A stretch of 64,000 bases of DNA from Pseudomonadota bacterium (lineage in GTDB: Bacteria > Pseudomonadota > Gammaproteobacteria > Burkholderiales > Burkholderiaceae_C). The position numbers and the translations under genes are program-made. Numbering within the stretch: position 1 is the first letter of the stretch; each line of letters opens with the position of its first letter. The stretch is taken from NCBI GenBank assembly GCA_018241225.1, contig JAFEEG010000033.1, positions 1 through 64,000 of the forward strand. Direction: 5' to 3'. Positions 16,133 through 32,129 of this stretch are shown here, in pieces. The notes under the pieces were generated by a model, which worked only from the letters and a program-made list of their open reading frames with translations, did not search any database and was not told the origin of the DNA.

Positions 16133-16858
16133 TTATTCGTCCAGGGACGCGTTGTGATAGACGTCCTGGACGTCGTCCAGGTCTTCCAGCGCGTCGAGCA
16201 GCTTCTGCATCCTGGCGGCGTCTTCGCCGGCGATGTCGATCATGTTCTCGGCACGCATGGTCACTTCGGCTGCGTCCGGCTTCAGGCCGGCCGCTTCCAG
16301 CGCGTTCTTCACGGCCTCGAAATCGGCCGCGGCGGTGAGCACTTCGATGGCGCCGTCGTCATCGGTGATGACGTCTTCGGCGCCGGCTTCGAGCGCGACT
16401 TCCATCACCTTGTCCTCGCTGGTGCCGGGCGCGAAGATGAGCTGGCCGCAATGCTTGAACTGGAAGGCCACCGAGCCTTCGGTGCCCATGTTGCCGCCGT
16501 ACTTGGAGAACGCGTGGCGCACCTCGGCCACGGTGCGCACGCGGTTGTCGGTCATGGTGTCGACGATGATCGCGGCGCCGCCGATGCCGTAGCCCTCGTA
16601 GCGGATTTCCTCGTAGGTCACGCCTTCGAGGTTGCCGGTGGCCTTGTCGATGTTGCGCTTGATGGTGTCGGCCGGCAGGTTGACCGCCTTGGCCTTGTCG
16701 ACCGCCAGGCGCAGCCGGGGGTTGGCGCTGAGGTCGCCGCCACCAGCCTTTGCCGCCACCATGATTTCACGGATGGCACGGGTCCAGAGCTTGCCGCGCT
16801 TTTCGTCCTGACGGCCTTTTCTGTGCTGGATATTCGCCCATTTGCTGTGTCCGGCCAT
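16133..16858 (-). CDS. yebC: YebC/PmpR family DNA-binding translation/transcription factor
   Basis: The protein has 241 residues. It starts with the family hallmark [18 protein letters not shown] and retains [39 protein letters not shown] and the acidic C-terminus [15 protein letters not shown]. YebC-type proteins are reported as transcription regulators and as factors that help ribosomes through proline runs. It is the first gene of the eight-gene minus-strand operon that runs to rng, and its promoter must lie in the 120-base divergent gap to the methyltransferase at 16979. Confidence 0.95.
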
Positions 16859-16978: not shown

Positions 16979-17749
16979 ATGACGTCATCGCCCACCGACG
17001 CAGGTCGAAGCCCCCAGGCCCTTGCCCCCCACACGCCCCTGGCCGGCTACTACAAGGATGAAGTCGAGCATCGCGCCTTCCTGCAGAAGATCTTCGACGA
17101 CACCGCCCCCGACTACGAGCGCATCGAGAACGTGCTGGCCTTCGGCTCCGGCCGCTGGTACAGGCGCCAGGCGCTGCTGCGCGCGGGCCTGAAACCGGGC
17201 GCCGAGGTGCTCGACGTGGGCATCGGCACCGGCATGGTGGCCACCGAGGCGCTGGGCATCATCGGCTCGGCCGGTCGCCTGGTGGGCGTGGACCCCAGCC
17301 CCGGCATGATGGGCCAGGTGCACCTGCCCGGCGTGGAACTGGTCCAGGGCATGGCCGAGTCCCTGCCCCGGCCCGACGCCAGCTGCGACTTCCTGAGCAT
17401 GGGCTATGCCCTGCGCCACATCGGCGACGTGACGGCCGCCTTTTCGGAGTTCCACCGCGTGCTTCGTCCAGGCGGGCGCCTGGTAGTGCTCGAAATCACC
17501 AAGCCCCGCGGTGCCATGGGCACGGCCGCGCTCAAGGCCTACATGCGCAGCGTGGTGCCGGTCATTGCCCGCTTCACCGCCCGCAAGCATGCATCGCCCG
17601 AACTCTGGCGCTACTACTGGGACACCATCGAGGCATGTATCGCGCCCGAGACAGTCGTGCAGGCCTTGCGCGACGCAGGCTTCGTCGACGTGCGCCAGCG
17701 CCTGGAACTGGGCATCTTCTCCGAATACACGGCGAGCAAGGCACAGTGA
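16979..17749 (+). CDS. UbiE-like SAM-dependent methyltransferase
   Basis: This 256-residue class I methyltransferase has motif I VLDVGIGTGMVATEAL at about 72-87 and a UbiE-type post-motif region (YALRHIGDVTAAFSEFHRVL, then GGRLVVLEITKP). UbiE C-methylates ubiquinone or menaquinone rings. Here the gene is not next to ubiJ/ubiB but starts an arm that continues directly into a chorismatase (GTGA overlap). An aromatic-ring methyltransferase acting on the hydroxybenzoate-derived head group is therefore plausible, as C-methylated heads occur in aryl polyenes. That role is inference; it could also be the cell's UbiE. Confidence 0.75.
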   Translation: MTSSPTDAGRSPQALAPHTPLAGYYKDEVEHRAFLQKIFDDTAPDYERIENVLAFGSGRWYRRQALLRAGLKPGAEVLDVGIGTGMVATEALGIIGSAGRLVGVDPSPGMMGQVHLPGVELVQGMAESLPRPDASCDFLSMGYALRHIGDVTAAFSEFHRVLRPGGRLVVLEITKPRGAMGTAALKAYMRSVVPVIARFTARKHASPELWRYYWDTIEACIAPETVVQALRDAGFVDVRQRLELGIFSEYTASKAQ

Positions 17750-18771
17750 GGATCGGCACGCCCGTGACTGCATCGGCGCTGAGTGTCGGGCGCGCCCCCC
17801 TGGAAAGCACGCTGCACACCGGTGCACAAGCCCAGCCGCCGCTGGGCGCACTGGCCTACGGCCAGGCAGCCAACGTGCCCTGGATGAGCAGCGTCAACGC
17901 CCCCGTTCTGTTTGCACACGCGCCACAGGCCGACCTGTGGCGAGCCGGTGCGCGCGTCGATGCCGGCCGCAGCGGCGCGGTGCGCTGGCGCACCGATGGT
18001 CACTGGGCCTTCGGCATCATCGACCTGCCCGAAGATGGCGAGGGCCTTGAATCGCTGGCCGAAACAGGCTATCGCGACCTGTTCCAGGCCCTGCAGGACA
18101 CGGGTTGCCCGCACCTGCTGCGCATCTGGAACTACCTGCCGCGCATCAATGAAGACGGCGGCGGGCTGGAGCGCTATCGCCAGTTCAACGTGGGCCGCCA
18201 GCGGGCCTTCATCGACGCCGGACACGCGGTGTACGAAGGCTCGCCTGCGGCCTGCGCGCTCGGCGCACAAGAAGGCGGCCTGTCGATCCGATTCCTGGCG
18301 GGCCAGTTGGCGCCGCTAGCCATCGAGAACCCGCGCCAGGTCTCGGCCTACCGCTACCCCAGCAGCTACGGCCCGCGCCCGCCCACCTTCTCGCGAGCGG
18401 CGCTGGCCGACATGGGCGACGGGCAGCTGGCCCTGCTCATCTCCGGCACGGCCAGCATCGTCGGCCATGCGACCGTGCACCCGGGCGACGCTGCCGAACA
18501 GACGCGCGAGACCCTGCGCAACCTGGCGGCTGTGGTGGAAGCGGCCAACCAGCGCTGCACCGCCGGCTTCGACATGGCCGAGTTGCACCCGGTGGTCTAT
18601 GTGCGCCACCCCGGCGATGCGCCACGCGTGCGAGACGTATTGACAAGCGCCCTGGGTGCCGACGCCACCTTCCTCCAGCACGCCGTTTTCCTGCAGGCAG
18701 ACATCTGCCGCCAGGACCTGCTGGTCGAGATCGAGGCACACGCCGTGGCCCGCGGCGCGGTGAAGGCATGA
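17746..18771 (+). CDS. Chorismatase, XanB2-like (hydroxybenzoate-forming)
   Basis: The protein has 341 residues from a GTG at 17746 that overlaps the previous stop (GTGA). It resembles the XanB2/Hyg5/FkbO chorismatase family: HLLRIWNYLPRINEDGGGLE, then RYRQFNVGRQRAF, LLISGTASIVGHATVHPG, and a C-terminal DLLVEIEA block containing a conserved Glu. Family members cleave chorismate to 3- and/or 4-hydroxybenzoate or to dihydroxycyclohexadiene acids. XanB2 of Xanthomonas supplies hydroxybenzoates for the aryl-polyene pigment xanthomonadin and for ubiquinone. The neighbouring AMP ligase/ACP genes fit a hydroxybenzoate starter supply. The exact product (3-HBA against 4-HBA) cannot be assigned from sequence alone. 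Confidence 0.82.
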   Translation: MRIGTPVTASALSVGRAPLESTLHTGAQAQPPLGALAYGQAANVPWMSSVNAPVLFAHAPQADLWRAGARVDAGRSGAVRWRTDGHWAFGIIDLPEDGEGLESLAETGYRDLFQALQDTGCPHLLRIWNYLPRINEDGGGLERYRQFNVGRQRAFIDAGHAVYEGSPAACALGAQEGGLSIRFLAGQLAPLAIENPRQVSAYRYPSSYGPRPPTFSRAALADMGDGQLALLISGTASIVGHATVHPGDAAEQTRETLRNLAAVVEAANQRCTAGFDMAELHPVVYVRHPGDAPRVRDVLTSALGADATFLQHAVFLQADICRQDLLVEIEAHAVARGAVKA

Positions 18772-18790
18772 AGAAGGCACTGCCTCGCGC

Positions 18791-19591
18791 ATGAAGCGTC
18801 TTCTTCAAAAGGCAAGGCCCTTTCTCCTCGCGCCGCCGCTGTACGGGCTGCTGATTGCACTTGGCCTGGTCTCGCTGCTGTGGAACCTGCTGTCCCTGCC
18901 CCTGCTCTGGCTGCTGCCCGAGGCGCAGGGCCTGGCCCTGGGGCGCGCCGTCATCGCGCATTCCTACCGGCTGTTCTGGGCCGCGGCCTCGGTCACCGGG
19001 ATGATGCGGGTGGACGCATCGTGCCTGGACGCGCTCAAGGACGAGCAGGGCCTGATCATCGTGGCCAACCATCCCACCATGCTCGACGCCTTGCTGCTGG
19101 TGGCGCGCCTGCCGCGCAGCGCCTGCATCATGAAGGCCGAGCTGATGCGCAATGTGTTCCTCGGTGCGGGCGCAAGGCTGGCGCGCTACATCCGCAACGA
19201 TTCCGCCCGCACCATGATTCGCCTGGCGGTGCAAGACCTGCGGCGGGGCGGGCAACTGGTGATCTTTCCAGAGGGCACGCGCACGGTCACGCCGCCGCTG
19301 GACCCTTTCCGCCCCGGCGTGACGCTGATCGCCAAGCTGGCCAAGGCGCCCATCCAGACGGTCTACATCGACACCGACACTCCCTACCTGAGAAAGGGCT
19401 GGCCGATCTGGCGCGTGCCGCCGCTGCCCATCCGGGTCAAGCTGCACCTGGGCAAGCGTTTTGCGCCGCGGGCCGACAGCGATGCACTGCTGCAGGAGCT
19501 GGAACAGTACTATCGGGGCCCCTTGAAAGAAGAGCGCGCCACCGACGCGACAGCTGCATGCACGAGCCATCGCGCACCCACCTTGTCCTGA
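18791..19591 (+). CDS. PlsC-type acyltransferase (1-acylglycerol-3-phosphate acyltransferase-like)
   Basis: The protein has 266 residues. Two hydrophobic segments at about 12-45 anchor it. The acyltransferase motif NHPTMLD (NHX4D type) lies at about 93-99 and FPEGTR at about 158-163. Such LPLAT proteins occur in aryl-polyene clusters and probably attach the polyene acyl chain to a glycerol or sugar lipid. The gene starts 19 bases after the chorismatase and overlaps the next gene by 34 bases, so the plus arm is one transcript. A housekeeping role in phospholipid synthesis is the alternative. Confidence 0.82.
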   Translation: MKRLLQKARPFLLAPPLYGLLIALGLVSLLWNLLSLPLLWLLPEAQGLALGRAVIAHSYRLFWAAASVTGMMRVDASCLDALKDEQGLIIVANHPTMLDALLLVARLPRSACIMKAELMRNVFLGAGARLARYIRNDSARTMIRLAVQDLRRGGQLVIFPEGTRTVTPPLDPFRPGVTLIAKLAKAPIQTVYIDTDTPYLRKGWPIWRVPPLPIRVKLHLGKRFAPRADSDALLQELEQYYRGPLKEERATDATAACTSHRAPTLS

Positions 19592-20334
19592 TTCCCAGCT
19601 ACAACACAGGCGAGCGCCTGTTCTCCACCGTGGCCGCAGCGCGCGCCCAGTGGAGCCCCGTGTGGGTGGTGGTCGACGGCAGCACGGACGGCACCGGCGA
19701 GCGCCTGCAGGCCCTGGCCGCCACCGACCCCGGCCTGCGCGTGTTCGTGCTGCCCAGCAACCAGGGCAAGGGCGCTGCCGTGCTGCATGGCCTGCGGCAG
19801 GCCCGCGCGGCAGGCTTCACGCACGCGCTCACCATGGACTCGGACGGGCAGCATCCGGCCGACCTCATCGCCCCCTTCATGGCGCGCTCGCAGGCACGGC
19901 CCGAGGCCATGGTGCTGGGCAAGCCGGTGTTCGACGCCAGCGCCCCGCTGCTGCGCGTGCGTGGACGGCGCATCTCCAACGGCTGGACCGAGCTCGAAAC
20001 CCTGTTCGCGGGCATCGGCGATTCGCTCTACGGATTTCGCGTGTACCCCATTGCGCCGCTGATCGCAGTCATGCAGCGCCAGCCCTGGATGCGCCGCTTC
20101 GACTTCGACACCGAAGCCGTGGTCCGCCTGGCCTGGCAAGGCGTCAAGCCCATCAACATCGACGCGCCGGTGAAATACCTCAGTGCCGAGGAAGGAGGCG
20201 TGTCGCACTTCAACTACGTGCGCGACAACGCCCTGCTGACCTGGATGCACACGCGCCTGATGCTCGAGTTCGGGCTGCGCCTGCCGCTGCTGGTGGCGCG
20301 TCGCCTGCGCCGGGCACCACCCTTCCAGCCCTGA
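19558..20334 (+). CDS. Family 2 glycosyltransferase
   Basis: This 258-residue GT-A fold protein has LIPSYNTGERLFSTV at the N-terminus, VVVDGSTDGTGE, a donor-site TMDSDGQHP (DxD-like) and a later YGFRVYPIAPL. It resembles dolichol-phosphate mannosyltransferase-like GT2 enzymes found in aryl-polyene clusters, where a glycosyltransferase and an acyltransferase can be fused; here they are separate genes. No membrane helices are obvious. The start ATG at 19558 lies inside the end of the preceding acyltransferase gene. The sugar and acceptor are unknown. Confidence 0.82.
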   Translation: MHEPSRTHLVLIPSYNTGERLFSTVAAARAQWSPVWVVVDGSTDGTGERLQALAATDPGLRVFVLPSNQGKGAAVLHGLRQARAAGFTHALTMDSDGQHPADLIAPFMARSQARPEAMVLGKPVFDASAPLLRVRGRRISNGWTELETLFAGIGDSLYGFRVYPIAPLIAVMQRQPWMRRFDFDTEAVVRLAWQGVKPINIDAPVKYLSAEEGGVSHFNYVRDNALLTWMHTRLMLEFGLRLPLLVARRLRRAPPFQP

Positions 20335-20341
20335 GCTGACT

Positions 20342-21370
20342 TCATCCGGCTGGCTGCGCAGCAGGTGCCAGGCCGACCCCGGCGCGCCGCCCGGCCTCCT
20401 GGCGCAGGTACGCCGAAGGCGACAGGCCCGACCAGCGTCGAAACGCCCTGGAAAACTCCTTGCCCGATTCGTAGCCTGCGTCTTCGGCAATGCGCACCAG
20501 CGCCACGGTACCCGCCTCCATCGTTTGCGCCGCCATCGCCATGCGATGCGCGGTGAGATAGCTGATGGGCGTCACGCCCACCAGGTCCTTGAAGCGCTCG
20601 GCAAAACGAGTGCGTGACAAGCCCGCCTCGCTGGCCAGCGTGGCAACGCTCCAGGCCTGCCCCGGCGTGCGGTGCATGGCCAGGAGCGCGCGCGCGATGT
20701 TCGGGTCGCCCAGCCCGCGCAACCAGCCAGTGCCGTGGCTGTTGTCGGCCAACAGATGCGCACGCAGCAGGTTCACCAGCAGCAGCTCGCCCATGCGCGC
20801 CGCAGAAAGCCGCCAGCCGGCGCGGCGCCCCAGCGTTTCCTCCACCAGCCCTTGCATCGTCTGGCCGAGCACGCCCGTCATGGGCAGGTCGGCTTCGCGC
20901 AAGCGAATGAACGGCGGCAGCACGCTCAGCACGACATGGCGGCAATAGGCCGAGAACCAGATCTGCGCGGAGAACATCTCGGTCATCTCGCCGCCCCCGC
21001 CATGCTCGAAGACCAGCGGGTTCTCGTCGCGGGCGCCGCGTGCATGGCGCGCGATCATCTCGGAGAACGCGGTGGTGCCGGCACCCGGTGCACTGACCAT
21101 GCGATGCGCCACGCCGGGGCGCATCATGACGAGGTCGCCCGGCTCGATGTGCATCGGCGCCATGCCATCGATCTCCAGCCAGTAAGGCGCGCGCCGCGCC
21201 AGCCGGATCATCGCGCCCGGCACACCTGCGGAGGTCAGGCCCCAGGGCGCGCTGAGCGCGAATCGCGCCGTCACCGCATGCTCCGAGCGGCAGATGGCCA
21301 GCACTTCGCTGAGGACATCCATGGCGTCGGATGCGCACTCCGTTGGAGGGGCTGGACGAATAGCGGTCAT
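20342..21370 (-). CDS. AraC-family transcriptional regulator (cupin-type)
   Basis: The protein has 342 residues from the ATG at 21370. An N-terminal cupin-like sensor domain (APYWLEIDGMAPMHIEPGD, PGVAHRMVS) is followed by a C-terminal double helix-turn-helix at about 225-325 (WSVATLASEAGLSRTRFAER; VRIAEDAGYESGKEFSRAF). An in-frame ATG at 21430 would leave only 20 bases to the divergent monooxygenase gene, so the shorter start is preferred. It probably controls that divergent monooxygenase gene. It is convergent with the glycosyltransferase, 7 bases apart, and seems to be part of a two-gene module inserted between the arms of the polyene-like locus. Confidence 0.85.
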   Translation of the reverse strand: MTAIRPAPPTECASDAMDVLSEVLAICRSEHAVTARFALSAPWGLTSAGVPGAMIRLARRAPYWLEIDGMAPMHIEPGDLVMMRPGVAHRMVSAPGAGTTAFSEMIARHARGARDENPLVFEHGGGGEMTEMFSAQIWFSAYCRHVVLSVLPPFIRLREADLPMTGVLGQTMQGLVEETLGRRAGWRLSAARMGELLLVNLLRAHLLADNSHGTGWLRGLGDPNIARALLAMHRTPGQAWSVATLASEAGLSRTRFAERFKDLVGVTPISYLTAHRMAMAAQTMEAGTVALVRIAEDAGYESGKEFSRAFRRWSGLSPSAYLRQEAGRRAGVGLAPAAQPAG

Positions 21371-21450
21371 AACGGGGGCCTCGGCGGTTGAGGGCGACAG
21401 CGCCTGCCTGAAGAATCCAGGCTCATTCAAAGGTAGCTCGAGGTTTTCCC

Positions 21451-22620
21451 ATGATATCCACCACCGGCCGGCCGACTGATCGGCCCCATCGTTTGACTAT
21501 CGGCATTGCCGGCGCCGGCATCGGCGGCCTGGCGGCAGCCATTGCCCTGCGCCGCGCCGGCCACGACGTGATCGTGTTCGAGCAGGCCAGCCAGTTCGCC
21601 CGCGTGGGCGCGGACATCAACCTCACGCCCAATGCAGTGCGCGCACTCGACGGCCTGGGCGTGGGCGAAGCGGCCCGGGTGACGGCCGCCCGCCCCTCGC
21701 ACCGCATCAGCCGCAGCTTCGACAGCGGCGAAGAGACCTCGCGCCTGGAAATGGCCGACACCGCCGAGCAGAAGTACGGTGCGCCGCAGCTGACCATTCA
21801 TCGCGCCGACCTGCTGGCCGCGTTCACCGAGGCCGTGCCCGCCGAGTGCATCCAGCTGGGCCGGCGCGTGCAAGCCATTGCGCAGGACGAACAAGGCGCA
21901 ACAGTGCGCTTCGAGAACGGCGACGAGGTGCGCATGGACGCACTCATCGGCGCCGACGGCATTCACTCAGCCGTGCGCACCGCCATGTTCGGCGCCGAAA
22001 GCCCGCGCTTTACCGGCATCGTGGCCTACCGCGCCGTGGCACCGGCCACGAGCGTGGCGGGCGTGCCCAACCTGGGCGCCTTCACCAAGTGGTGGGGGCC
22101 CAATCCGCAGAGCCAGATCGTCACCTTCCCGCTCAACCGCGGCAAGGACGTCTTCATCTTCGCCACCACCGCGCAGGACAGCTGGCACCTGGAATCGTGG
22201 ACCGCACCTGGCAGCGTGCAAGAGCTGCGCGCCCACTACGCCGACTACCACCCCGAAGCCCGCGCGCTGCTCGACGCCTGCGACACGGTGCTCAAGACCG
22301 CGCTCTACGAACGCGATCCGATGCCGGCGTGGACCCAGGGACGCCTGGCCCTGCTGGGAGATGCCGCCCATCCCATGCTTCCCTTCATGGCCCAGGGTGC
22401 GGGCATGGCCATCGAAGACGCGGTGGTGCTGGCACGGCACCTGGAAGGCGTGAACGCGCAAGGCGTAGGCGCCGCGCTGGCGCGCTACGCCACGGCGCGC
22501 ATGGAGCGCGCTGCCCGGGTGCAGTTGGGTTCGCGCGGCAACAACTGGCTGCGCGAAGGCGGCAATGCGGATTGGGTCTACGGCTACGACGCCTGGACCG
22601 CGCCGCTGGCGGCGCAGTGA
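21451..22620 (+). CDS. FAD-dependent aromatic monooxygenase (salicylate/3-hydroxybenzoate hydroxylase-like)
   Basis: The protein has 389 residues. The FAD-binding motif GIAGAGIGGLAAAIALRRAG is at about 18-37, the DG motif region is LIGADGIHSAVRTAMFG, and the GD motif is LLGDAAHPMLPFMAQGAGMA. This is the group A flavoprotein hydroxylase fold that uses NAD(P)H and O2 to hydroxylate phenolic acids such as salicylate or 3-hydroxybenzoate. It is divergent from an AraC regulator. A chorismatase that may produce hydroxybenzoates lies 3 kb away, so a product of that pathway is one candidate substrate; unrelated aromatic catabolism is the other. Confidence 0.83.
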   Translation: MISTTGRPTDRPHRLTIGIAGAGIGGLAAAIALRRAGHDVIVFEQASQFARVGADINLTPNAVRALDGLGVGEAARVTAARPSHRISRSFDSGEETSRLEMADTAEQKYGAPQLTIHRADLLAAFTEAVPAECIQLGRRVQAIAQDEQGATVRFENGDEVRMDALIGADGIHSAVRTAMFGAESPRFTGIVAYRAVAPATSVAGVPNLGAFTKWWGPNPQSQIVTFPLNRGKDVFIFATTAQDSWHLESWTAPGSVQELRAHYADYHPEARALLDACDTVLKTALYERDPMPAWTQGRLALLGDAAHPMLPFMAQGAGMAIEDAVVLARHLEGVNAQGVGAALARYATARMERAARVQLGSRGNNWLREGGNADWVYGYDAWTAPLAAQ

Positions 22621-22639
22621 ACGCCCGATCCGGCAGGCC

Positions 22640-23371
22640 TCAGATCATTCCGCCATTGATCGAGATCACCTGGCCGGTGACATAGGCCGCTTCGTCGCTG
22701 GCCAGGAACGCCGCCAGGGCCGCCACTTCATCGGGCGTGCCGGCGCGCTTGGCAGGCACCATCTGGTCGATCAGCGCCTTGTCGAACACCGCGTCGGCCA
22801 TGGGCGAGGCAATGATGCCCGGTGCAATGGCGTTCACGGTAACGCCGCGCGCCGCGACTTCCAGCGACAGCGACTTGGTGGCACTGTTGATCGCGCCCTT
22901 GGCCGCCGAATAGTTCACCTGCCCGCGGTTGCCGGTGAGCGACGCCACCGACGACACGTTGATGATGCGCCCCCATCGCGTGCGCAGCATGGGCAGCAGC
23001 AAGGGCTGCGTCACGCGGAAGAAGCCGTTGAGCGACACGTCGATCACCTTGTGCCACTGCTCGGCACGCATGCCGGGCAGCACAGCGTCGTCATGCACGC
23101 CGGCGTTGTTGACCAGGATCTGCACGGGGCCGTCTTCCAGGATCTTCTGGCAGGCCTGCGCGCAGGCTTCGTCGCTGCGCAGGTCGAACACATGGCATTG
23201 GGCGTGGCCGCCAGCCTTGGCAATGTCGTCTGCCAGCGCCTGCACCGACTCGGGCCGCGAATTGGCATGCAGCAGCACGGTGGCGCCGCCGGCCGCCAAC
23301 CGGCGTGCAATGGCCTGGCCCAGGGCGCCGCTGGCGCCGGTGATGAGTGCGCGTTTTCCGTTCCAGCTCAT
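22640..23371 (-). CDS. 3-ketoacyl-ACP reductase (FabG-like, ApeQ-like)
   Basis: This 243-residue short-chain dehydrogenase has the NAD(P)-binding motif ALITGASGALGQAIARRLA near the N-terminus, the NNAG motif (LVNNAGVHDD), the catalytic Ser in NVSSVAS and YSAAK (Tyr and Lys), ending with the FabG-like YVTGQVISINGGMI. It would reduce beta-ketoacyl-ACP intermediates during polyene chain extension. Its start overlaps the dehydratase stop (ATGA). It is the last gene of the ten-gene minus arm. In known aryl-polyene clusters ketosynthase genes lie beside this gene; here the next gene is the convergent monooxygenase. Confidence 0.88.
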   Translation of the reverse strand: MSWNGKRALITGASGALGQAIARRLAAGGATVLLHANSRPESVQALADDIAKAGGHAQCHVFDLRSDEACAQACQKILEDGPVQILVNNAGVHDDAVLPGMRAEQWHKVIDVSLNGFFRVTQPLLLPMLRTRWGRIINVSSVASLTGNRGQVNYSAAKGAINSATKSLSLEVAARGVTVNAIAPGIIASPMADAVFDKALIDQMVPAKRAGTPDEVAALAAFLASDEAAYVTGQVISINGGMI

Positions 23372-23832
23372 GCGTTGTTGCTTTCCATGGATGCGAGAGG
23401 CGTGTTCAGCACCACCACCGCCCGCCCCTGCGCGAGCGAGCGGCCAGTGGCATCGAGCACGCTGAATTCGTAGAGAACCTGGCGTTCGTCGCCCGACAGC
23501 CGGTTGGCATGCACCTGCATCGCGCCATCGACCCGGTCGAGCCGCTCCACGCCGAAGCGCACCGAGCGAACGCTGGCCAGGTAGCCAGCCGATGGCGCCT
23601 GCCCGGCGCTGGCCGTGAGGCCGCCATGCAATGCCATGGCCTGGGCGGCGTATTCGATGGCATTGGGTGCCATCAGGCCACTTGCGGTGCGCAAGGGATT
23701 GCCGGCGTCGAGATGGGTGCTGGTGCTGCAGTGGATGCGCTGCGCGTCCCAGCTTTCGAGTTTTTCCAGCAGGCACATGCTGCCGCGGTGCGGAATGCGC
23801 TGCTCGATGCCAGCGCGGTCGAGGTGATTCAT
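23368..23832 (-). CDS. ApeP-like 3-hydroxyacyl-ACP dehydratase (hotdog fold)
   Basis: This 154-residue hotdog-fold protein of the COG4706 type begins RIPHRGSMCLLEKLESWDAQ, the typical start of ApeP-type dehydratases, and has LMAPNAIEYAAQAMALHGG in the central helix. With the FabG-like reductase it would generate the conjugated double bonds of an aryl polyene. It overlaps both neighbours by four bases (ATGA), which strongly suggests one transcript and coupled translation. The classical FabA/FabZ catalytic residues cannot be aligned by eye with certainty. Confidence 0.82.
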   Translation of the reverse strand: MNHLDRAGIEQRIPHRGSMCLLEKLESWDAQRIHCSTSTHLDAGNPLRTASGLMAPNAIEYAAQAMALHGGLTASAGQAPSAGYLASVRSVRFGVERLDRVDGAMQVHANRLSGDERQVLYEFSVLDATGRSLAQGRAVVVLNTPLASMESNNA

Positions 23833-24593
23833 TTCAGGTCGGCCACCAGCAGGACGTTGGCAAAGGGCGTGCCGCGGCTCATCGGAAGGCTGCGCACCGC
23901 GAAGCCCATGCGCTGCAGCAATGCGGTCCACTCGGTCAGCGGACGGCCCCAGGTGGGCGCGACGGTGTGGCCGCGCGCACGTGTGACGGTGCGGTCCACC
24001 CACTGGCTGACGCGGTAGCCGCGACGGCTGGCGGCGTCGCCCACGCGCAGGAGCAAGCGCGCCGGAGTGCCGGGCTCGCGCTCGCCAGCGCCCAGCTCCA
24101 GGGCCTGGCGCACGTTGGAAAGAACGCGCTCCTGCGCTGGCAGGTCCACGTAGTGAAGCACGTCGAGAATGACCACCAGGTCGCTGGGCGGCATGGCCGC
24201 CTGGCACATGTCGCCGCACACGAAGGCCGGCGCCGGCTGCAAGTGGCCCACGGCACGGGTGGCACGGGCAATGTCGCGCGGCATCAGCTCGATGCCGGTG
24301 TAGTTCACGCTCGCGGGCGTGGCGGACCAGTCGAGCGGCCAGTGCAGCCGGGCCTGCATGTCGCTCATGGAAGACAGCAGGCTGGCAAACAGGCCTTGCC
24401 CGCAGCCGATGTCGAGCACGCGGCGCTGACCCGGGGCAATCAACCCTTCTTCGATCAGGCCCCGGAACACCGGATCGCGGCCGAGCTTGCCGCGTGCGAA
24501 GTGCCAGGCAAACCGGCCGGCCTGTCGATAAGGCTGCGTGGCCGCATCGTGCAGGTGGTGCCAGGCTATGTCGGGGTGGTGGTGCGTCTTCAT
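23829..24593 (-). CDS. Class I SAM-dependent methyltransferase in polyene-like locus
   Basis: The protein has 254 residues. Motif I is VLDIGCGQGLFASLL at about 59-73, with acidic motif II in YTGIELMPRD and motif IV-like VVILDVLHYVDLP. A His-rich N-terminus (MKTHHHPDIAWHHLHDA) precedes it. The C-terminal half has a partly basic region (RRGYRVSQWVDRTVTRARG). It is the second methyltransferase of the locus after the UbiE-like one on the plus arm. Aryl-polyene clusters carry a methyltransferase thought to act on the aromatic head; which of the two does so here is unknown. Confidence 0.8.
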   Translation of the reverse strand: MKTHHHPDIAWHHLHDAATQPYRQAGRFAWHFARGKLGRDPVFRGLIEEGLIAPGQRRVLDIGCGQGLFASLLSSMSDMQARLHWPLDWSATPASVNYTGIELMPRDIARATRAVGHLQPAPAFVCGDMCQAAMPPSDLVVILDVLHYVDLPAQERVLSNVRQALELGAGEREPGTPARLLLRVGDAASRRGYRVSQWVDRTVTRARGHTVAPTWGRPLTEWTALLQRMGFAVRSLPMSRGTPFANVLLVADLK

Positions 24594-25414
24594 CACGATG
24601 CAAGTCCTTGTGGCAAGGTGACCGAATGCAGGCCCTGGGCCTGCAGGCGCGACAGAAGTTGCGGCAGCACCTCCAGCAGCACGGGGCGCCCTTGCGGCGA
24701 GCGCGCTGCATTGCCGTCGTGCAGCAGGAGGATGTCGCCCGCGGCCAGGCCGCGCGTCAGGCGGCCGAGCACGCGCTGCGCATCGCCCTCGCGCGTATCG
24801 AAGCCGCGTCGCGTCCAGCTCACCAGCGTAAGGTCCATGCGCTGCAGCACCGGCGCCAGGAACATGTTGCGAAAGCCCGCGGGCGCGCGAAAGCAGGTGG
24901 GCGCCTGCCCCAGCACCTGCGCCAGCATGCGCTGCGCGCGCTCGAGCTCGTTCGCATAACCCTTGGGCCCGAGGAAGGAGAAATCGTGGCGGTGCCGCGC
25001 CGTGTGGTTCTGGATGCTGTGGCCGCGCCGCACGATCTCGCGCGCCAGCGCAGGGTGCGCGGCCACGCGATCGGCAATGCAGAAGAAGGTGGCCTTCTGC
25101 CCGGCGGCGTCCAGCAGGTCGAGCACGGCCGGCGTCACCTCGGGATCGGGGCCGTCGTCGATGGTGATGGCCACTTCTGCGCGCGCCACGGCGGCGGCGG
25201 GAAGGCGCGAGACGTTGCGGCCCAGCAGCGTGCTGCGCGGCAAGAGCCCGGCGACCGTGATGACCACGTGGTTGAACACCACGGCCGCCAGCGCCCAAGG
25301 TGCCGCACCGCGCACCAGCACCGCCGCTGCCAGGGCCAGCAGGTGCCACGCAATGCTGGCGCTCACGAAGGGCGTCAGCATTCGGACGGTGGGAACGGAG
25401 GCGGAATCGGACAT
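24593..25414 (-). CDS. Polysaccharide deacetylase (NodB-type) family protein
   Basis: The protein has 273 residues. Two hydrophobic stretches at about 10-55 suggest membrane anchoring, followed by a NodB homology domain: VAITIDDGPDPEVTPAVLD (catalytic/metal Asp pair), SIQNHTARHRHDF (metal histidines), CFRAPAGFRN, and a late DILLLHDGNAA. These metal-dependent enzymes remove N-acetyl or similar groups from sugars, with extracytoplasmic or lipid-linked substrates. The gene overlaps the methyltransferase by one base. It is not part of the core E. coli-type aryl-polyene gene set and may tailor a sugar added by the glycosyltransferase. An earlier in-frame start at 25513 would overlap the exporter gene. 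Confidence 0.82.
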   Translation of the reverse strand: MSDSASVPTVRMLTPFVSASIAWHLLALAAAVLVRGAAPWALAAVVFNHVVITVAGLLPRSTLLGRNVSRLPAAAVARAEVAITIDDGPDPEVTPAVLDLLDAAGQKATFFCIADRVAAHPALAREIVRRGHSIQNHTARHRHDFSFLGPKGYANELERAQRMLAQVLGQAPTCFRAPAGFRNMFLAPVLQRMDLTLVSWTRRGFDTREGDAQRVLGRLTRGLAAGDILLLHDGNAARSPQGRPVLLEVLPQLLSRLQAQGLHSVTLPQGLAS

Positions 25415-25472
25415 GCCAGGGATCGGATGTGGGGTGTTCGCGGTCGCGCAAAACGCAGTCAGCAATTTTCCC

Positions 25473-27869: not shown

Positions 27870-27889
27870 GCGCGGCGGGGCGTGCCGGA

Positions 27890-28480
27890 TCAGGAAGGCG
27901 CCTTGGGCGAGATGGTCATCACCGAGCGGTCGCCGCCGATGAACTCCATCTCCACGCCCAGCACCTGGCCCTGGCGGCCGTTCAGGCGCACGCTGCGCAC
28001 CTGCGAGGCCAGGCGCTCGTCGATGGGCTGCAAGTCCAGCGTCCAATTGGCCTGGCTGCCCGCCACCTGCGTGCGAAAGTGCTGCTGCAGCAGTTTGGCG
28101 TCGCCCGTCAGGGTGCCGCGCAGCGCGTCCACCATGCCCTGCAGCTCTGGCATGCTGTCCAGCGTCAGGGTGCGGGTGCGGCCCGCGCGCGACAGCGTCA
28201 GGGTGTTGCCCTCCACCACCATCGATTCAGGCCGGGGCGAAACGGTGCTGCGCGCGAGCTTGTCGGGCGCGCTGAAGCTCAGCGTGCCGGCCGAGTTGAG
28301 CGGGCCGTCCACGCCGCGCACGAAGCGCTGCTCGACAAAGCCTGCCTCGCCGCCTTTTTGCCGCGCCAGCTGCGACATCAGCTCGGACAGGTCGAAGGCC
28401 CAGGCCGGGGATGCCGCCCCCAGCAGCAGCGCCAGGGCCAGCACCAGCGAATCAAGGCGCGTCTTCAAGCCAGAAATCAT
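27890..28480 (-). CDS. LolA-like outer-membrane lipoprotein carrier family protein (ApeL-like)
   Basis: The protein has 196 residues. A signal peptide (LVLALALLLGAASPAWA, cleavage near 28) is followed by a LolA-fold domain: FDLSELMSQLARQKGGEAGF, the conserved FVEQRF start of the first strands, and the late VNL-like SVRLNGRQGQVLGVEMEF. LolA-like proteins with MMPL partners are thought to carry a hydrophobic product across the periplasm. It overlaps the acyltransferase gene by 29 bases. It is not the housekeeping LolA, judging by its divergence and its context. Confidence 0.82.
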   Translation of the reverse strand: MISGLKTRLDSLVLALALLLGAASPAWAFDLSELMSQLARQKGGEAGFVEQRFVRGVDGPLNSAGTLSFSAPDKLARSTVSPRPESMVVEGNTLTLSRAGRTRTLTLDSMPELQGMVDALRGTLTGDAKLLQQHFRTQVAGSQANWTLDLQPIDERLASQVRSVRLNGRQGQVLGVEMEFIGGDRSVMTISPKAPS

Positions 28481-29441
28481 GGAAGTTGAACCAGTTGTGC
28501 GGATGTTCGCGGCAAAGCGCCTCCAGGCGCGCGACATAGGCTTCGAGGGCGGCGCGGATCTGCGCTTCGCGGTCGGCCCCCGCAACCCGCTCGCTGAAGT
28601 CGGCCAGCGGCTCGAAGCGCACCTCGTAGTGCGCCCCGCCAAGATACAGGCCCGCCATGAAGAAGACCTTGCGTTGCAGCAGTGCGGCCAGGCGAAAGGG
28701 GCCGTCGCTGAAGCTGGCAGCCTTGCCCAGGAACGGCAGCTCGACGCTGTCGCAGCGCTGTCCTGCTGCTTCTTCGCCTTTGGTGAGCGTGCGGTCGGCC
28801 AAGAGGCCGGCCATGCCACCGGCGTCGAGCCAGTCGCGCAGGCGCAGCATGGCTTCGGGGCGGCCCAGCGCAATCACCTCGGGCCGGAAGCGCGGCTCGC
28901 TGATGGCTTCGAGCACCGAGTTGATCTGCTGCGCGTTGTCCGGATACATGAGCATCGCCAGGCGCAACTGGTCCGGCGAATCGGCGGTGTAGCGGCTCGC
29001 GCCCACCGCCTCGAAGCTGCCCACGTGCGCGCCGATCAGGAAGGCGCCGCGCCCGGCGGCCACTTCGGCGTCCAGCGCCGAGGCCCCCTTCACGTCGAAG
29101 GTGAACAGGTCGTGCCGCCCGCGCAGGAAGAACACGCGGTCGAGCACCACCGAGGCGAAGGCATGGATCAGCCGGTAGCCGTCGTGCCAGTTCATGCGCT
29201 CCTCGCCCACCGTGCGGCGCAGGTAGCGCTTGATGTGGCGCCGCTGGCTGGGCGAGAACAGCAGGAAATAGAAGCTGACGGCCGGCAAGATCAGCCGCAC
29301 CACGCGTCGTCCGCAGGTCAGCGCCAGCCAGCAGAAGAAGCGCAGCACCAGCATGTTGCTGCGCTCGGGCGTGTGCGCCCAATCGCCCGCCGCCGGCGTT
29401 GCCTCGGCGCCAGCATTTGCTTGCAGCGGTGGGCGGCTCAT
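28452..29441 (-). CDS. LpxL/HtrB-like acyltransferase
   Basis: The protein has 329 residues. One hydrophobic segment at about 45-70 (LILPAVSFYFLLFSP) precedes a lauroyl-acyltransferase-like domain with the HX4E motif in FLIGAHVGSFEAVGASRY and a later LLADRTLTKGEE. The C-terminus ends HPHNWFNFHDFW, as in the COG4261 acyltransferases of aryl-polyene clusters. In E. coli-type clusters this domain is, to my recollection, fused to a GT2; here the GT2 is a separate plus-strand gene. It starts 2 bases after the ligase stop. Confidence 0.85.
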   Translation of the reverse strand: MSRPPLQANAGAEATPAAGDWAHTPERSNMLVLRFFCWLALTCGRRVVRLILPAVSFYFLLFSPSQRRHIKRYLRRTVGEERMNWHDGYRLIHAFASVVLDRVFFLRGRHDLFTFDVKGASALDAEVAAGRGAFLIGAHVGSFEAVGASRYTADSPDQLRLAMLMYPDNAQQINSVLEAISEPRFRPEVIALGRPEAMLRLRDWLDAGGMAGLLADRTLTKGEEAAGQRCDSVELPFLGKAASFSDGPFRLAALLQRKVFFMAGLYLGGAHYEVRFEPLADFSERVAGADREAQIRAALEAYVARLEALCREHPHNWFNFHDFWLEDAP

Positions 29442-29443
29442 GT

Positions 29444-31162
29444 TCACTCCGCGCTTCGCACCCAGCGCCCGCTGGCGGCAAGCACGTCCGCGCTTCGCAC
29501 TTCGAAGCGCACGCCGCCGGTGGCACCAGCCTCGGGCTGCAGCTCGATGGTCAGCGTGCAATCGGGGCCCACTGGCGTCAGGAACTTGGCGGCGGCCAGG
29601 GTCGGATTGGCGCCCAGGCGCGCCACCAGCGCCGGGACACCCGCCATGGCCTCGCGTACCTCGGACAGGATCAGGGCGCCGGGCAACAACGGCTGGCCGG
29701 GAAAATGGCCCGGGAAAGCGGGGTGGTCCGCGGGCACCTCGCGGGTCAGGCGCACCGTGTCGCCATCTGCCGCAAGCTGCGCCTGCGCAAATTCGTGCAG
29801 GGTGCGCACCACCAGCTTGCCCGTGGCCTCGCGGGGCAGCGCCTTCACGTGCACCACGCGTCGCGGAACGAACACGGCTTCAAGGCGCTGGCGAAGCTGC
29901 GCAATGATGGCCTCGCCGGACAGCTCGGGCGCCACCACGAATGCCACAGGACGCACCACGCCATCGGCCACTTCGTCAGGCAGCCAAAAGGCGCCGTCCT
30001 GCACGCCGGCAATGCTGTTGAGGTGGTAATTGAGGTAGCCCAGCGAGCTGCGCCGTCCCGCCACATGAATCAGGTCGTTGGCGCGCCCCAGCAACCGGAA
30101 CTGGCGCTCGTCGATGAGCTCCAGGATGTCGGCCATGGGGGTGGGTTCCGGCACGAAGTCGCCCGCGAAGATGAAACGTTCGCCAGCATCGCCATGCTCG
30201 ACATGGACACGGATATCGCCGAGCGTTTCCCACACATCGGACTGGGTGGTGCGGCGGGTGGCCGCCTGGCCGGTTTCGGTGCTGCCGTAGATCTCGATCA
30301 TCGGGCCGCCCAGGGCCTCTTCGGCTTGCGCCGCCAGTTGGGGCGACAGCGGTGCGGTGGCCGACAGGATGAAATCGACCGGCGGCAGCTCGACGCCGGA
30401 CAGCAGCAATGTCTTCAGATGAAACGGCGTGGTGACCAGCGCACGCGGCCGGGGCACGGCCGCCAGGGCCCGCGCAATGTCGGCCGGGAAGAACGGCCGC
30501 CCGCTGTCGAAGGCCGCGCCGCCCAGCAATGCCAGCAGCACCGAGGACTCCAGGCCGTAGCTGTGCTGCACGGGCACGGTGGCCACCAGCGTGAGGCCCT
30601 CCAGCGAAGACCTGCCCAGCAGCGACGCGAGCCGCGGAACCGCCGCCGCCACGTCGCCCACCAGGGTGCCCCAGCGCTTGGCATGGGCCTGCGGCACGCC
30701 GGTGGAGCCCGAGGTGAGCAGGCTTACGGCGTGGCAATCCGCATCGAACGACGGGACGGCGACCGCGGCGCCTTCGCTCGCTTCGCCAGGCGGCGGCAGC
30801 TGGTACAGCACGCGCTGCAATCCGGGTGTTGCCAGGCTCTTGTCGTCAGTCAGCGCGTAGCAGTCATCGCCCGATTCGTGCAGGCGCGCCAGCGTGTCGG
30901 GCCGCGCGTCGGGTGGCAGCAGGCTGGCGTGGCCGCGCAGCAAGGCGGCCGCCAGGCCAACGGCAAAGGCGTAGCGATCGACACACAGGTTGATGGCTGG
31001 GCCGACACCGTCCGGCAGGGTGGACGCGAGCTGCTGCGCGTCGGCAAGGAAGCGGCGTCCGCTGACAGGCGTGCCGGCATGCCAGGCAACGGGCGCATCC
31101 AGGTCCCGGTTCACAAGGAGTGGCAGGGCCGACTGGCCCGCCACGGACGTCAAGGCGTTCAT
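29444..31162 (-). CDS. AMP-dependent acyl/aryl ligase fused to ApeI-like dehydratase
   Basis: The protein has 572 residues in two domains. Residues ~1-455 are an adenylate-forming ligase (P-loop-like A3 motif SLLTSGSTGVPQAHAKRWG; IYGSTETGQAATRR; GRANDLIHVAGRR; C-terminal region KALPREATGKLVV). Residues ~465-572 form a FabZ/ApeI-like hotdog with HPAFPGHFPGQPLLPGALIL. The ligase would load an aromatic acid such as hydroxybenzoate onto the acyl carrier protein, and the hotdog would dehydrate chain intermediates. In E. coli the two activities (ApeH, ApeI) are separate. Its start overlaps the COG4648 gene stop (ATGA). Confidence 0.88.
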   Translation of the reverse strand: MNALTSVAGQSALPLLVNRDLDAPVAWHAGTPVSGRRFLADAQQLASTLPDGVGPAINLCVDRYAFAVGLAAALLRGHASLLPPDARPDTLARLHESGDDCYALTDDKSLATPGLQRVLYQLPPPGEASEGAAVAVPSFDADCHAVSLLTSGSTGVPQAHAKRWGTLVGDVAAAVPRLASLLGRSSLEGLTLVATVPVQHSYGLESSVLLALLGGAAFDSGRPFFPADIARALAAVPRPRALVTTPFHLKTLLLSGVELPPVDFILSATAPLSPQLAAQAEEALGGPMIEIYGSTETGQAATRRTTQSDVWETLGDIRVHVEHGDAGERFIFAGDFVPEPTPMADILELIDERQFRLLGRANDLIHVAGRRSSLGYLNYHLNSIAGVQDGAFWLPDEVADGVVRPVAFVVAPELSGEAIIAQLRQRLEAVFVPRRVVHVKALPREATGKLVVRTLHEFAQAQLAADGDTVRLTREVPADHPAFPGHFPGQPLLPGALILSEVREAMAGVPALVARLGANPTLAAAKFLTPVGPDCTLTIELQPEAGATGGVRFEVRSADVLAASGRWVRSAE

Positions 31163-31800
31163 CGGCGAAATGCTTCGTCAGAGCGGCCGCCACCCATGGC
31201 CACGCGCAGCACGTCGACCAGGCGGTAGCGCTCGAATTCCGGGTGCAGGCGATAGCGCATGAAGTGCTCGCCCACGAAAAGCGTCACCACGCAAAGCGGC
31301 GTCAGTACGTTGGCGAGCAGCGACCAGGCACTGAAGGACATGGTGAGATAGACCGCGACGGACAGCAGCGCCATCAAGGCGAAATAGCCGACCCACACCG
31401 CCGTGACCTTGCCAGAATAGACGCGCATGTCCGCGGACAGCGGATGCACGCGCTGCGCAAACTCACCAATGAGGGAAAGGCGCCCTGGCCGCAAGGTGCT
31501 GGCAAACCAGGCGCACAGCACGGCGTTGATGCCCACGTGCTGCAGCACGTACAGGCGATTGGGGCTGCCGGCGTCGCCGCGAGAAATTGCCCAGACCAGC
31601 ACACCGCCCAGCACCACGGCCATCAGTGCGCCCAGCCACCCGAAGCGGCTGGCACCCAGCCCAAGCACGGCCAGCCACAGCGGCGCGAACAAGGCGGCAA
31701 GCGCCCATGGCGCCGTTGCGTGGTAGAGCATCATCCAGTGCGACAGGCCGGCATACGCCAGCCCGGCCACCAGAATCAGTGCCAGGCGCCATTGCGACAT
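31159..31800 (-). CDS. COG4648 membrane protein (ApeG-like)
   Basis: This 213-residue protein has about six hydrophobic segments (ALILVAGLAYAGLSHWMML, LAVLGLGASRFGWLGALMAV and others) and a soluble C-terminal tail (EHFMRYRLHPEFERYRLVDV). It matches the predicted membrane protein family COG4648, which is characteristic of aryl-polyene clusters, sits between the carrier protein and ligase genes, and has no established biochemical function. It starts 17 bases after the acyl carrier protein gene and overlaps the ligase by four bases. Confidence 0.8.
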   Translation of the reverse strand: MSQWRLALILVAGLAYAGLSHWMMLYHATAPWALAALFAPLWLAVLGLGASRFGWLGALMAVVLGGVLVWAISRGDAGSPNRLYVLQHVGINAVLCAWFASTLRPGRLSLIGEFAQRVHPLSADMRVYSGKVTAVWVGYFALMALLSVAVYLTMSFSAWSLLANVLTPLCVVTLFVGEHFMRYRLHPEFERYRLVDVLRVAMGGGRSDEAFRR

Positions 31801-31817
31801 GGCGGGTTGCAGCGCGC

Positions 31818-32129
31818 TCAGGGCGCGGTGCGGTTCTGTGCGACGTGCGCCGCGAGGCTGCGCAACGACGAGAAGATCTGCTGGTTGCGCTCGTCGTCGG
31901 ACCGCAACTGGAAGCCGTAGCGGCGCGACACTTCGAGCGCCACTTCCAGGATGTCGATCGAGTCCAGGCCCAGGCCTTCGCCGTACAGGGGCGCTTCGGG
32001 TGCGATGTCTGCGGCGGCCACCTCGAGGTTCAGCGCCTCCACCAGCAACACGGCCAGTTCGTTCTCGAGCGGCGATTGCTGGTCGGCGCCGCCAGCGGAA
32101 GGCTTAGAGGACTCTGCGGTCAATGACAA
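31818..32129 (-). CDS. Acyl carrier protein of polyene-like locus
   Basis: The protein has 103 residues from a TTG at 32129, placed 7 bases after a GGAG ribosome binding site; no ATG exists in frame nearby. After a short Ser/Gly-rich leader, the carrier domain runs from [18 protein letters not shown] to the C-terminus, with the phosphopantetheine Ser in [16 protein letters not shown]. It is the first gene of the ten-gene minus arm; the promoter would lie in the 115-base divergent gap to the HerA-like gene. Only one carrier protein gene is visible, while E. coli-type clusters have two. Confidence 0.85.

What the first reader, a model, noticed from the sequence alone, without database searches (positions are those of the whole stretch)
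16979..32129. Aryl-polyene/xanthomonadin-like locus without any ketosynthase
Seen: ACP, COG4648 membrane protein, AMP-ligase fused to an ApeI-like dehydratase, acyltransferases, LolA-like carrier, MMPL exporter, methyltransferases, ApeP-like dehydratase, FabG-like reductase and a XanB2-like chorismatase lie in two converging arms. Established knowledge: aryl-polyene clusters carry two or more ketosynthase/chain-length genes beside the reductase and dehydratase. Reading both strands through 16979-32129 shows no ketosynthase; the minus arm is gapless from ACP to FabG. Inference: chain extension is supplied from elsewhere, the locus makes a short hydroxybenzoate lipid instead of a polyene, or the genes were lost.
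Basis: partly seen in the sequence, partly recalled or inferred. Interest (0 to 1): 0.85.

Follow-up and report, generated by a model that had tools for sequence, protein, structure and literature searches.

The report
Yellow-pigment genes split across the genome
The gene cluster really lacks the enzymes that lengthen the pigment chain, but matching enzymes sit elsewhere in the same genome, a scattered layout also seen in the sampled relatives and broadly known, so it is ordinary rather than new chemistry.

Summary
In detail: 16979-32123 is an intact aryl-polyene (xanthomonadin/arcuflavin-like) core without a ketosynthase, and Pfam searches of the whole genome find none on this contig. The genes need not be lost nor the product short. 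This Variovorax (near V. soli) carries an ApeO-type ketosynthase and ApeC-type chain-length factor (CLF) on contig 46, with an intact Cys-His-His triad and dN/dS like the core. A FabF-like ketosynthase/ACP/PAP2 unit lies on contig 20 and a dialkylresorcinol-like locus on contig 13. In the genus sample 36 of 37 genomes match both ligase and CLF, never close together; in the 10 with both on one contig they are 2.1-3.4 Mb apart. In 200 family genomes all 44 ligase carriers match the CLF (46 carriers); in 33 the two lie within 12 kb, with the pair just before ApeP in the stretches read. Unlinked arcuflavin loci in Azoarcus (PMC3949708) and a KS/CLF-like pair in V. paradoxus (PMC3691225) are in print. 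Added here: the genus-wide map, and a CLF clade distinct from the in-core one.

The parts
16979..17749 (+). UbiE-like methyltransferase, plus arm
   Evidence: PF01209 1e-32
17746..18771 (+). FkbO/Hyg5/XanB2-family chorismatase (makes the hydroxybenzoate starter, inferred)
   Evidence: PF21168 5.5e-42; TIGR04444 218 bits, below cut-off 325; PDB 5ag3/5a3k/4bps
18791..19591 (+). PlsC-type acyltransferase (ApeD-like)
   Evidence: PF01553; 34% to E. coli ApeD
19558..20334 (+). GT2 glycosyltransferase (like the GT2 part of ApeJ)
   Evidence: PF00535; 40% to E. coli ApeJ
20342..21322 (-). AraC-family regulator, in the slot between FabG and GT2
   Evidence: PF12833, PF12852; 88% in V. soli L102
21493..22620 (+). 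flavin monooxygenase resembling 3-hydroxybenzoate 6-monooxygenase, below that model's cut-off
   Evidence: PF01494; NF006021 274 bits, cut-off 459; 92% in L102
22640..23371 (-). FabG-like ketoreductase (ApeQ)
   Evidence: NF004200 over cut-off; 43% to E. coli ApeQ
23368..23832 (-). ApeP-like dehydratase; in relatives a clade-B KS-CLF pair lies just before this gene
   Evidence: PF22817 16.8 bits, cut-off 27; order in relatives
23829..24593 (-). methyltransferase MT2 (start at 24593 overlaps the deacetylase stop)
   Evidence: PF13649 (with a shorter start)
24593..25414 (-). polysaccharide deacetylase-like protein
   Evidence: PF01522
25473..27869 (-). MMPL/HpnN-like exporter (ApeM)
   Evidence: PF03176, TIGR03480 below cut-off; 25% to E. 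coli ApeM
27890..28480 (-). LolA-like carrier (ApeL)
   Evidence: PF19574; NF053544 flexirubin LolA2, below cut-off
28452..29447 (-). lipid A-type (HtrB/LpxL-like) acyltransferase
   Evidence: PF03279
29444..31162 (-). AMP-ligase fused to ApeI-like dehydratase (ApeH-ApeI)
   Evidence: PF00501, PF07977; matches E. coli ApeH and ApeI
31159..31800 (-). ApeG-like membrane protein
   Evidence: no Pfam or NCBIfam hit; 24% to E. coli ApeG, E 4e-4
31818..32123 (-). acyl carrier protein (ApeE-like)
   Evidence: NF006617 134 bits over cut-off; 44% to E. coli ApeE

Best explanation
The locus is the starter, reduction, dehydration and export half of an aryl-polyene pathway whose condensing half is encoded elsewhere. 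Steps, all inferred from families: the chorismatase makes 3-/4-hydroxybenzoate; the ligase half of ApeHI loads it on the ACP; the ApeO:ApeC-type KS-CLF encoded on contig 46 adds malonyl units, with FabG and the ApeI/ApeP dehydratases leaving conjugated double bonds; the FabF-like KS with its own ACP and a PAP2 protein (contig 20) helps elongation or lipid attachment; the acyltransferases, LolA and MMPL proteins carry the product to the outer membrane. A dar-like locus on contig 13 suggests an ester with a dialkylresorcinol, as in arcuflavin. Shown here: the genes, their places, their conservation and co-occurrence. Not shown: expression, interaction, product.
For: The contig-46 KS is over the NF006618 cut-off, 43% identical to E. 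coli ApeO, and closest in the PDB to 7f28_B and 6qsp_A; its neighbour CLF matches only 6qsp_B and 7f28_A at E 0.001. Triad intact; dN/dS 0.13 (KS) and 0.11 (CLF) against 0.09-0.19 for seven core genes. Genus sample: CLF matched in 37 of 37, full ligase in 36 of 37, on different contigs or megabases apart. Family sample of 200: ligase 44, CLF 46, both 44; PAP2 34, all among the 44 (hypergeometric p, relatedness ignored). CLF and ligase lie within 12 kb in 33 of the 44. In G120, G134, G160 and others the KS-CLF pair lies in the core just before ApeP. In 4 named Variovorax loci the contig-20-type unit lies between FabG and GT2. Literature: ApeO-ApeC alone gave fully elongated polyene in vitro (PMC8358021, abstract); insertion in either of two unlinked arc loci made Azoarcus colourless (PMC3949708).
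Against: No expression or chemistry. Co-occurrence is between related genomes. Different contigs do not prove distance in fragmented assemblies, this genome's included; only 10 of the 36 genus genomes have both on one contig. The contig-20 KS is FabF-like, not shown to be ApeR; its PAP2 neighbour is not matched in 10 of 44 ligase carriers, and in four cluster stretches (L184, L185, L188, L192) PAP2 is near the core with no such KS called. A passage in PMC8253772 says ApeR is required for initiation in the Xenorhabdus in vitro work, though its own E. coli apeR deletion still made the lipid. Two genomes (G090, G215) have a weak CLF match and no ligase match. DarA is in only 6 of 200, one of them without the ligase.
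Confidence: 0.9

Rival explanations
1. The KS-free locus makes a short, unextended hydroxybenzoate lipid; the remote KS-CLF pair serves another pathway.
For: The core itself has no KS, and in this genome the KS-CLF pair lies between AmpG-like and OmpR/EnvZ genes, not beside other pathway genes.
Against: Two dehydratases and a ketoreductase are kept in the core; in the 200-genome family sample the CLF is matched in every ligase genome and in only 2 others; clade-A pairs lie in the core region of G254 and beside an MMPL/LolA/ACP group in G113.
Confidence: 0.05
2. The locus is a decaying remnant after loss of the ketosynthases.
For: The in-core clade-B KS-CLF pair of relatives is absent.
Against: The core genes are open frames; dN/dS 0.09-0.19 for seven of them against G028; the same KS-free core is found in loci named Variovorax, Xenophilus and Pseudacidovorax.
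Confidence: 0.02
3. House-keeping FabF (contig 31) does the elongation and the KS-CLF pair is dispensable.
For: FabF is present, and the type II enzymes are FAS-like.
Against: Retention of the KS-CLF pair with the ligase; in Lysobacter deletion of the KS or of the CLF-like partner abolishes pigment (PMC3691225, abstract and passages).
Confidence: 0.03

Closest known systems
Arcuflavin pathway of Azoarcus sp. BH72 (arc and dar loci; PMC3949708)
   Same: Same kinds of gene: chorismatase, GT2, acyltransferases, reductase, dehydratases, ligase, ACP, LolA, exporter, deacetylase, methyltransferase; unlinked loci; a dar locus elsewhere. The paper also lists clusters in V. paradoxus S110 (its Table S2, not readable here).
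   Different: In Azoarcus KS and CLF (arcK, arcJ) lie with reductase, dehydratase and chorismatase; here those genes are with the ligase/exporter half and only KS-CLF are apart.
APE cluster of E. coli CFT073 / Xenorhabdus / Acinetobacter
   Same: Significant matches to E. coli ApeC, D, E, G, H, I, J, L, M, O and Q across the genome pieces tested; ape letters assigned to the E. coli genes by order and recall.
   Different: There one contiguous cluster with ApeR, ApeK, ApeN and two ACPs; no window protein matched ApeA, B, F, K, N, P or R significantly. ApeH-ApeI are fused here and KS-CLF are remote.
Xanthomonadin-like cluster of Lysobacter/Xanthomonas (PMC3691225)
   Same: KS with an adjacent short CLF-like protein; the legend of its Figure 5 includes V. 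paradoxus and implies a halogenase there.
   Different: Contiguous cluster in Lysobacter; this genome lacks the halogenase-like gene.

Membership tests
Aryl polyene (APE) pathway | ApeO:ApeC-type KS-CLF pair in the genome | tested here: met
   Contig 46 pair
Aryl polyene (APE) pathway | KS-CLF in the same cluster as ligase, reductase and dehydratase | tested here: not met
   apart in the genus sample too
Aryl polyene (APE) pathway | Hydroxybenzoate-ACP ligase, ACP, ketoreductase, dehydratases, LolA and MMPL exporter | tested here: met
   the ApeP assignment is weak
Aryl polyene (APE) pathway | Second KS (ApeR) | tested here: inconclusive
   No ApeR orthologue recognised; the FabF-like KS of contig 20 may stand in
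Arcuflavin-type polyene-dialkylresorcinol | XanB2-type chorismatase | tested here: inconclusive
   Family FkbO/Hyg5; which of the three product types cannot be told from sequence
Arcuflavin-type polyene-dialkylresorcinol | dar locus in the genome | tested here: inconclusive
   Contig 13 gene order resembles darA-K; BtrH/DUF4872 by Pfam, a KS by Pfam; DarA, DarB, ACP and ABC names there rest on recall and order, and the DarA-like protein had no Pfam or NCBIfam hit
Arcuflavin-type polyene-dialkylresorcinol | Pigment structure | not testable with these tools
   No metabolite data

The most novel reading that the evidence does not exclude
The chain-elongation unit of this pathway is an exchangeable cassette. 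A clade-A KS-CLF pair, usually with a halogenase-like gene, entered or duplicated beside the original clade-B pair (CLFs of both kinds are present in G254, G113, G160 and G065), then displaced it in Variovorax, Xenophilus and Pseudacidovorax while living far away. Its CLF carries a conserved Cys where KS enzymes have their nucleophile and E. coli ApeC has Gln, so chain-length control may differ.
Probability: 0.4. Interest if true: 0.45.

Novelty: new member of a known kind. Interest (0 to 1): 0.28.

Why it matters
Cluster-finding tools look for neighbours. In this genus the ketosynthase pair and the rest of the pathway lie apart, so a tool that keys on the ketosynthase could miss the core and one that looks at the core would call it KS-free. 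The set of relatives with contiguous, doubled and split arrangements makes it testable how a type II polyketide pathway keeps working after its elongation enzymes move.

Tried and rejected
The remnant and short-lipid readings were weighed and rejected (see rivals). ApeR identity for the contig-20 KS was not supported: the best NCBIfam model is FabF, below its cut-off, the best PDB chain is a FabF (309 bits) while 4ewg, which PMC8358021 calls an ApeR homologue, scores 196; yet among the E. coli ape proteins its best match is ApeR. In the KS tree C13_KS, Ec_ApeR and Ec_ApeO are long branches and deep joins are not used; the second-pair KSs of G254 and G113 are not placed with the 15 other clade-A KSs there, so the A/B division rests on the CLF tree. 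My gene caller was trained on this GC-rich window and fails on AT-rich stretches (L189 gave three genes). A paper search for split aryl-polyene clusters listed nothing relevant; other searches are. Schoner 2016 is not held and was seen only as cited; supplements of PMC3949708 could not be read. The promoter/terminator scan gave no more than shuffles.
Full report
What is there. The locus is bounded by a YebC-like gene on the left (16133-16858; name recalled from its sequence, not scanned) and a HerA-like helicase gene on the right. The minus arm is tightly packed; the deacetylase stop overlaps the start of methyltransferase MT2 at 24593, and MT2 overlaps ApeP at 23829-23832.

No ketosynthase. 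PF00109 gives 12 matches and PF02801 five in the 6.4 Mb, 55-contig genome; none is on the window's contig C26. The five places with both halves are a large PKS frame (C20:11675), FabF (C31), a FabF-like KS (C20:108916), a KS on C46 and one on C13.

Where the ketosynthases are. On C46 (L014) a 384-aa KS and a 268-aa PF13723 protein (the CLF) lie between an MFS gene (called AmpG-like from recall) and a response-regulator gene. The KS is over the cut-off of NF006618, and the window ACP over that of NF006617. Best PDB chains are 7f28_B and 6qsp_A for the KS and 6qsp_B and 7f28_A for the CLF. PMC8358021 (abstract and passages) describes crystal structures of A. baumannii ApeO-ApeC and says that of X. 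doucetiae is known; that these entries are those structures is my inference. The KS is 43% identical to E. coli ApeO and 30% to ApeR; the CLF matches ApeC (36% over 88 residues). The KS has Cys, His and His in the places of FabF's triad. Between this genome and G028 dN/dS is 0.13 for KS and 0.11 for CLF (221 codons), against 0.09-0.19 for seven core genes, FabG over 126 codons only. G028's core contig has the length (151,394) of the named V. soli NBRC 106424 contig, so I take it as that strain.

Genus. Of 61 genomes drawn as relatives, 37 (this one included) are of the same genus. The CLF is matched in 37 of 37 (G012 only by a 45-residue piece; G007 and G028 in two pieces) and a full or nearly full ligase in 36 of 37 (G010, 89% complete, lacks it). 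In the 36 with both they are on different contigs or far apart; in the 10 with both on one contig the distance along it is 2.1 to 3.4 Mb. Named loci identify the genus: the best hits are a MAG, V. soli and Variovorax sp. OV329. Of the 80 named loci kept (312 candidates were confirmed, the best 80 returned), 72 hold all ten core genes and 8 are partial; 78 of 80 lack the ApeO-type KS and the CLF in the DNA held. The two with both are L179 (Rubrivivax rivuli) and L180 (a Burkholderiales MAG). Four Variovorax loci (L152, L157, L159, L161) give a 35-36% KS hit, which is the FabF-like KS.

Family. In 200 genomes of the family the ligase is matched in 44 and the CLF in 46, 44 in common; the two extra are G090 and G215, with weak matches. 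In 33 of the 44, CLF and ligase lie within 12 kb; in 11 they are on different contigs or, in G139, 0.9 Mb apart, some of these in fragmented assemblies. In contiguous relatives the KS-CLF pair sits just before ApeP, after the deacetylase (G120), the exporter (G134) or MT2 (G254, G129, one cluster of G160); in those with MT2 this is exactly the seamless MT2-ApeP join of the window.

Two clades of CLF. In a tree of 41 CLFs (of the 28 genus loci L021-L048, 10 were sampled), 19 form one clade (100/100, stem 1.3 changes per site) that holds this genome, the other genus rows, G131, G236, G251, remote copies of G160 and G065, and second copies of G254 and G113; the in-core CLFs of relatives fall outside it. 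The KS tree agrees in part only: 15 clade-A KSs group at 85/56, and those of G254 and G113 stand apart. G131's and G236's core contigs have the lengths of contigs named Xenophilus aerolatus E41 and Pseudacidovorax intermedius DSM 21352, so I take them for those. So the split genomes lack the in-core pair (B) and keep another (A). Clade A usually carries a halogenase-like gene (PF04820): a full-length match is in 30 of 37 genus genomes and not in this one or six others; related genes lie inside or beside clusters of G129, G134 and G124. Of the 19 clade-A CLFs, 18 have a Cys at the column of the KS nucleophile; of the 22 others 3 do, and E. coli ApeC, one of the 22, has Gln.

A third piece. The FabF-like KS, an ACP and a PAP2-family membrane protein are neighbours on C20. 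The PAP2 protein is matched in 34 of 200 family genomes, all 34 among the 44 with the ligase; in 20 of 34 it lies within 30 kb of ligase or CLF. All three genes lie in or beside the core in G129, G237, G217, G204, G124, G086, G212, G158, G065, G113 and G254, and in four named Variovorax loci between FabG and GT2, where the window has the AraC and monooxygenase genes; in L184, L185, L188 and L192 PAP2 is near the core with no such KS called. The KSs of six more distant genomes (43-47% identical) form a group of their own. I infer that the unit belongs to the pathway; its role is open.

Dialkylresorcinol. C13 carries a row of genes resembling the order of the Azoarcus dar locus (Table 1 of PMC3949708), several named here from recall, and in G065 the DarA-like and DarB-like genes follow the exporter gene of the core. 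DarA is in 6 of 200 family genomes, 5 of them with the ligase. This makes an arcuflavin-like product plausible, not shown.

Print. PMC3949708 (abstract, passages and one section) reports two physically unlinked arc loci, both needed for pigment, and clusters in V. paradoxus S110. PMC3691225 (abstract, passages, legends) shows the KS/CLF-like pair in V. paradoxus and its need in Lysobacter. PMC8253772 (passages) cites Schoner 2016 for antioxidant aryl polyenes in Variovorax, and PMC9964075 (passages) cites it for a polyene/dialkylresorcinol pigment of V. paradoxus B4. PMC10946135 (passages) reports predicted arylpolyene and resorcinol clusters in Variovorax sp. S12S4. Hence the finding is a real but largely known kind of layout. 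I did not see the genus-wide split, the CLF clade exchange or the third unit in the listings or in the passages read, but I read no paper whole, and the supplementary tables for V. paradoxus could not be read.

Verdict. Observation confirmed; 'supplied from elsewhere' supported; ordinary pathway in scattered form. Interest 0.28.

Noticed in passing
window 20342-22620: AraC regulator and 3-hydroxybenzoate-6-monooxygenase-like gene occupy the slot where four other Variovorax loci carry the FabF-like KS/ACP/PAP2 unit; among the 80 named loci (some too short to cover the slot) only V. soli (L102) shows close copies of both.
   Followed up: partly
L014 11208-12014 and clade-A CLFs: Clade-A chain-length factors have a conserved Cys in the column of the ketosynthase nucleophile (18 of 19 rows), unlike E. 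coli ApeC (Gln).
   Followed up: partly
L014 12014-12130 compared with L020-L048: The halogenase-like gene that follows the CLF in most Variovorax is missing at that site in this genome (L019), G028 (L020) and G029 (L040).
   Followed up: yes
L081 7903-10068 (G113): A single 721-aa open frame fuses a ketosynthase and a clade-A chain-length factor.
   Followed up: no
L083-L086 (G160): One genome with four CLF genes: two in contiguous clusters and two other clade-A copies.
   Followed up: no
L015 8643-16104 (contig 13): A dar-like (dialkylresorcinol) locus with its own KS, ACP-like, transporter-like and BtrH-like genes.
   Followed up: partly
L017 8782-19999 (contig 20): Large PKS/NRPS-like frames, possibly a siderophore pathway (guess from recall).
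   Followed up: no
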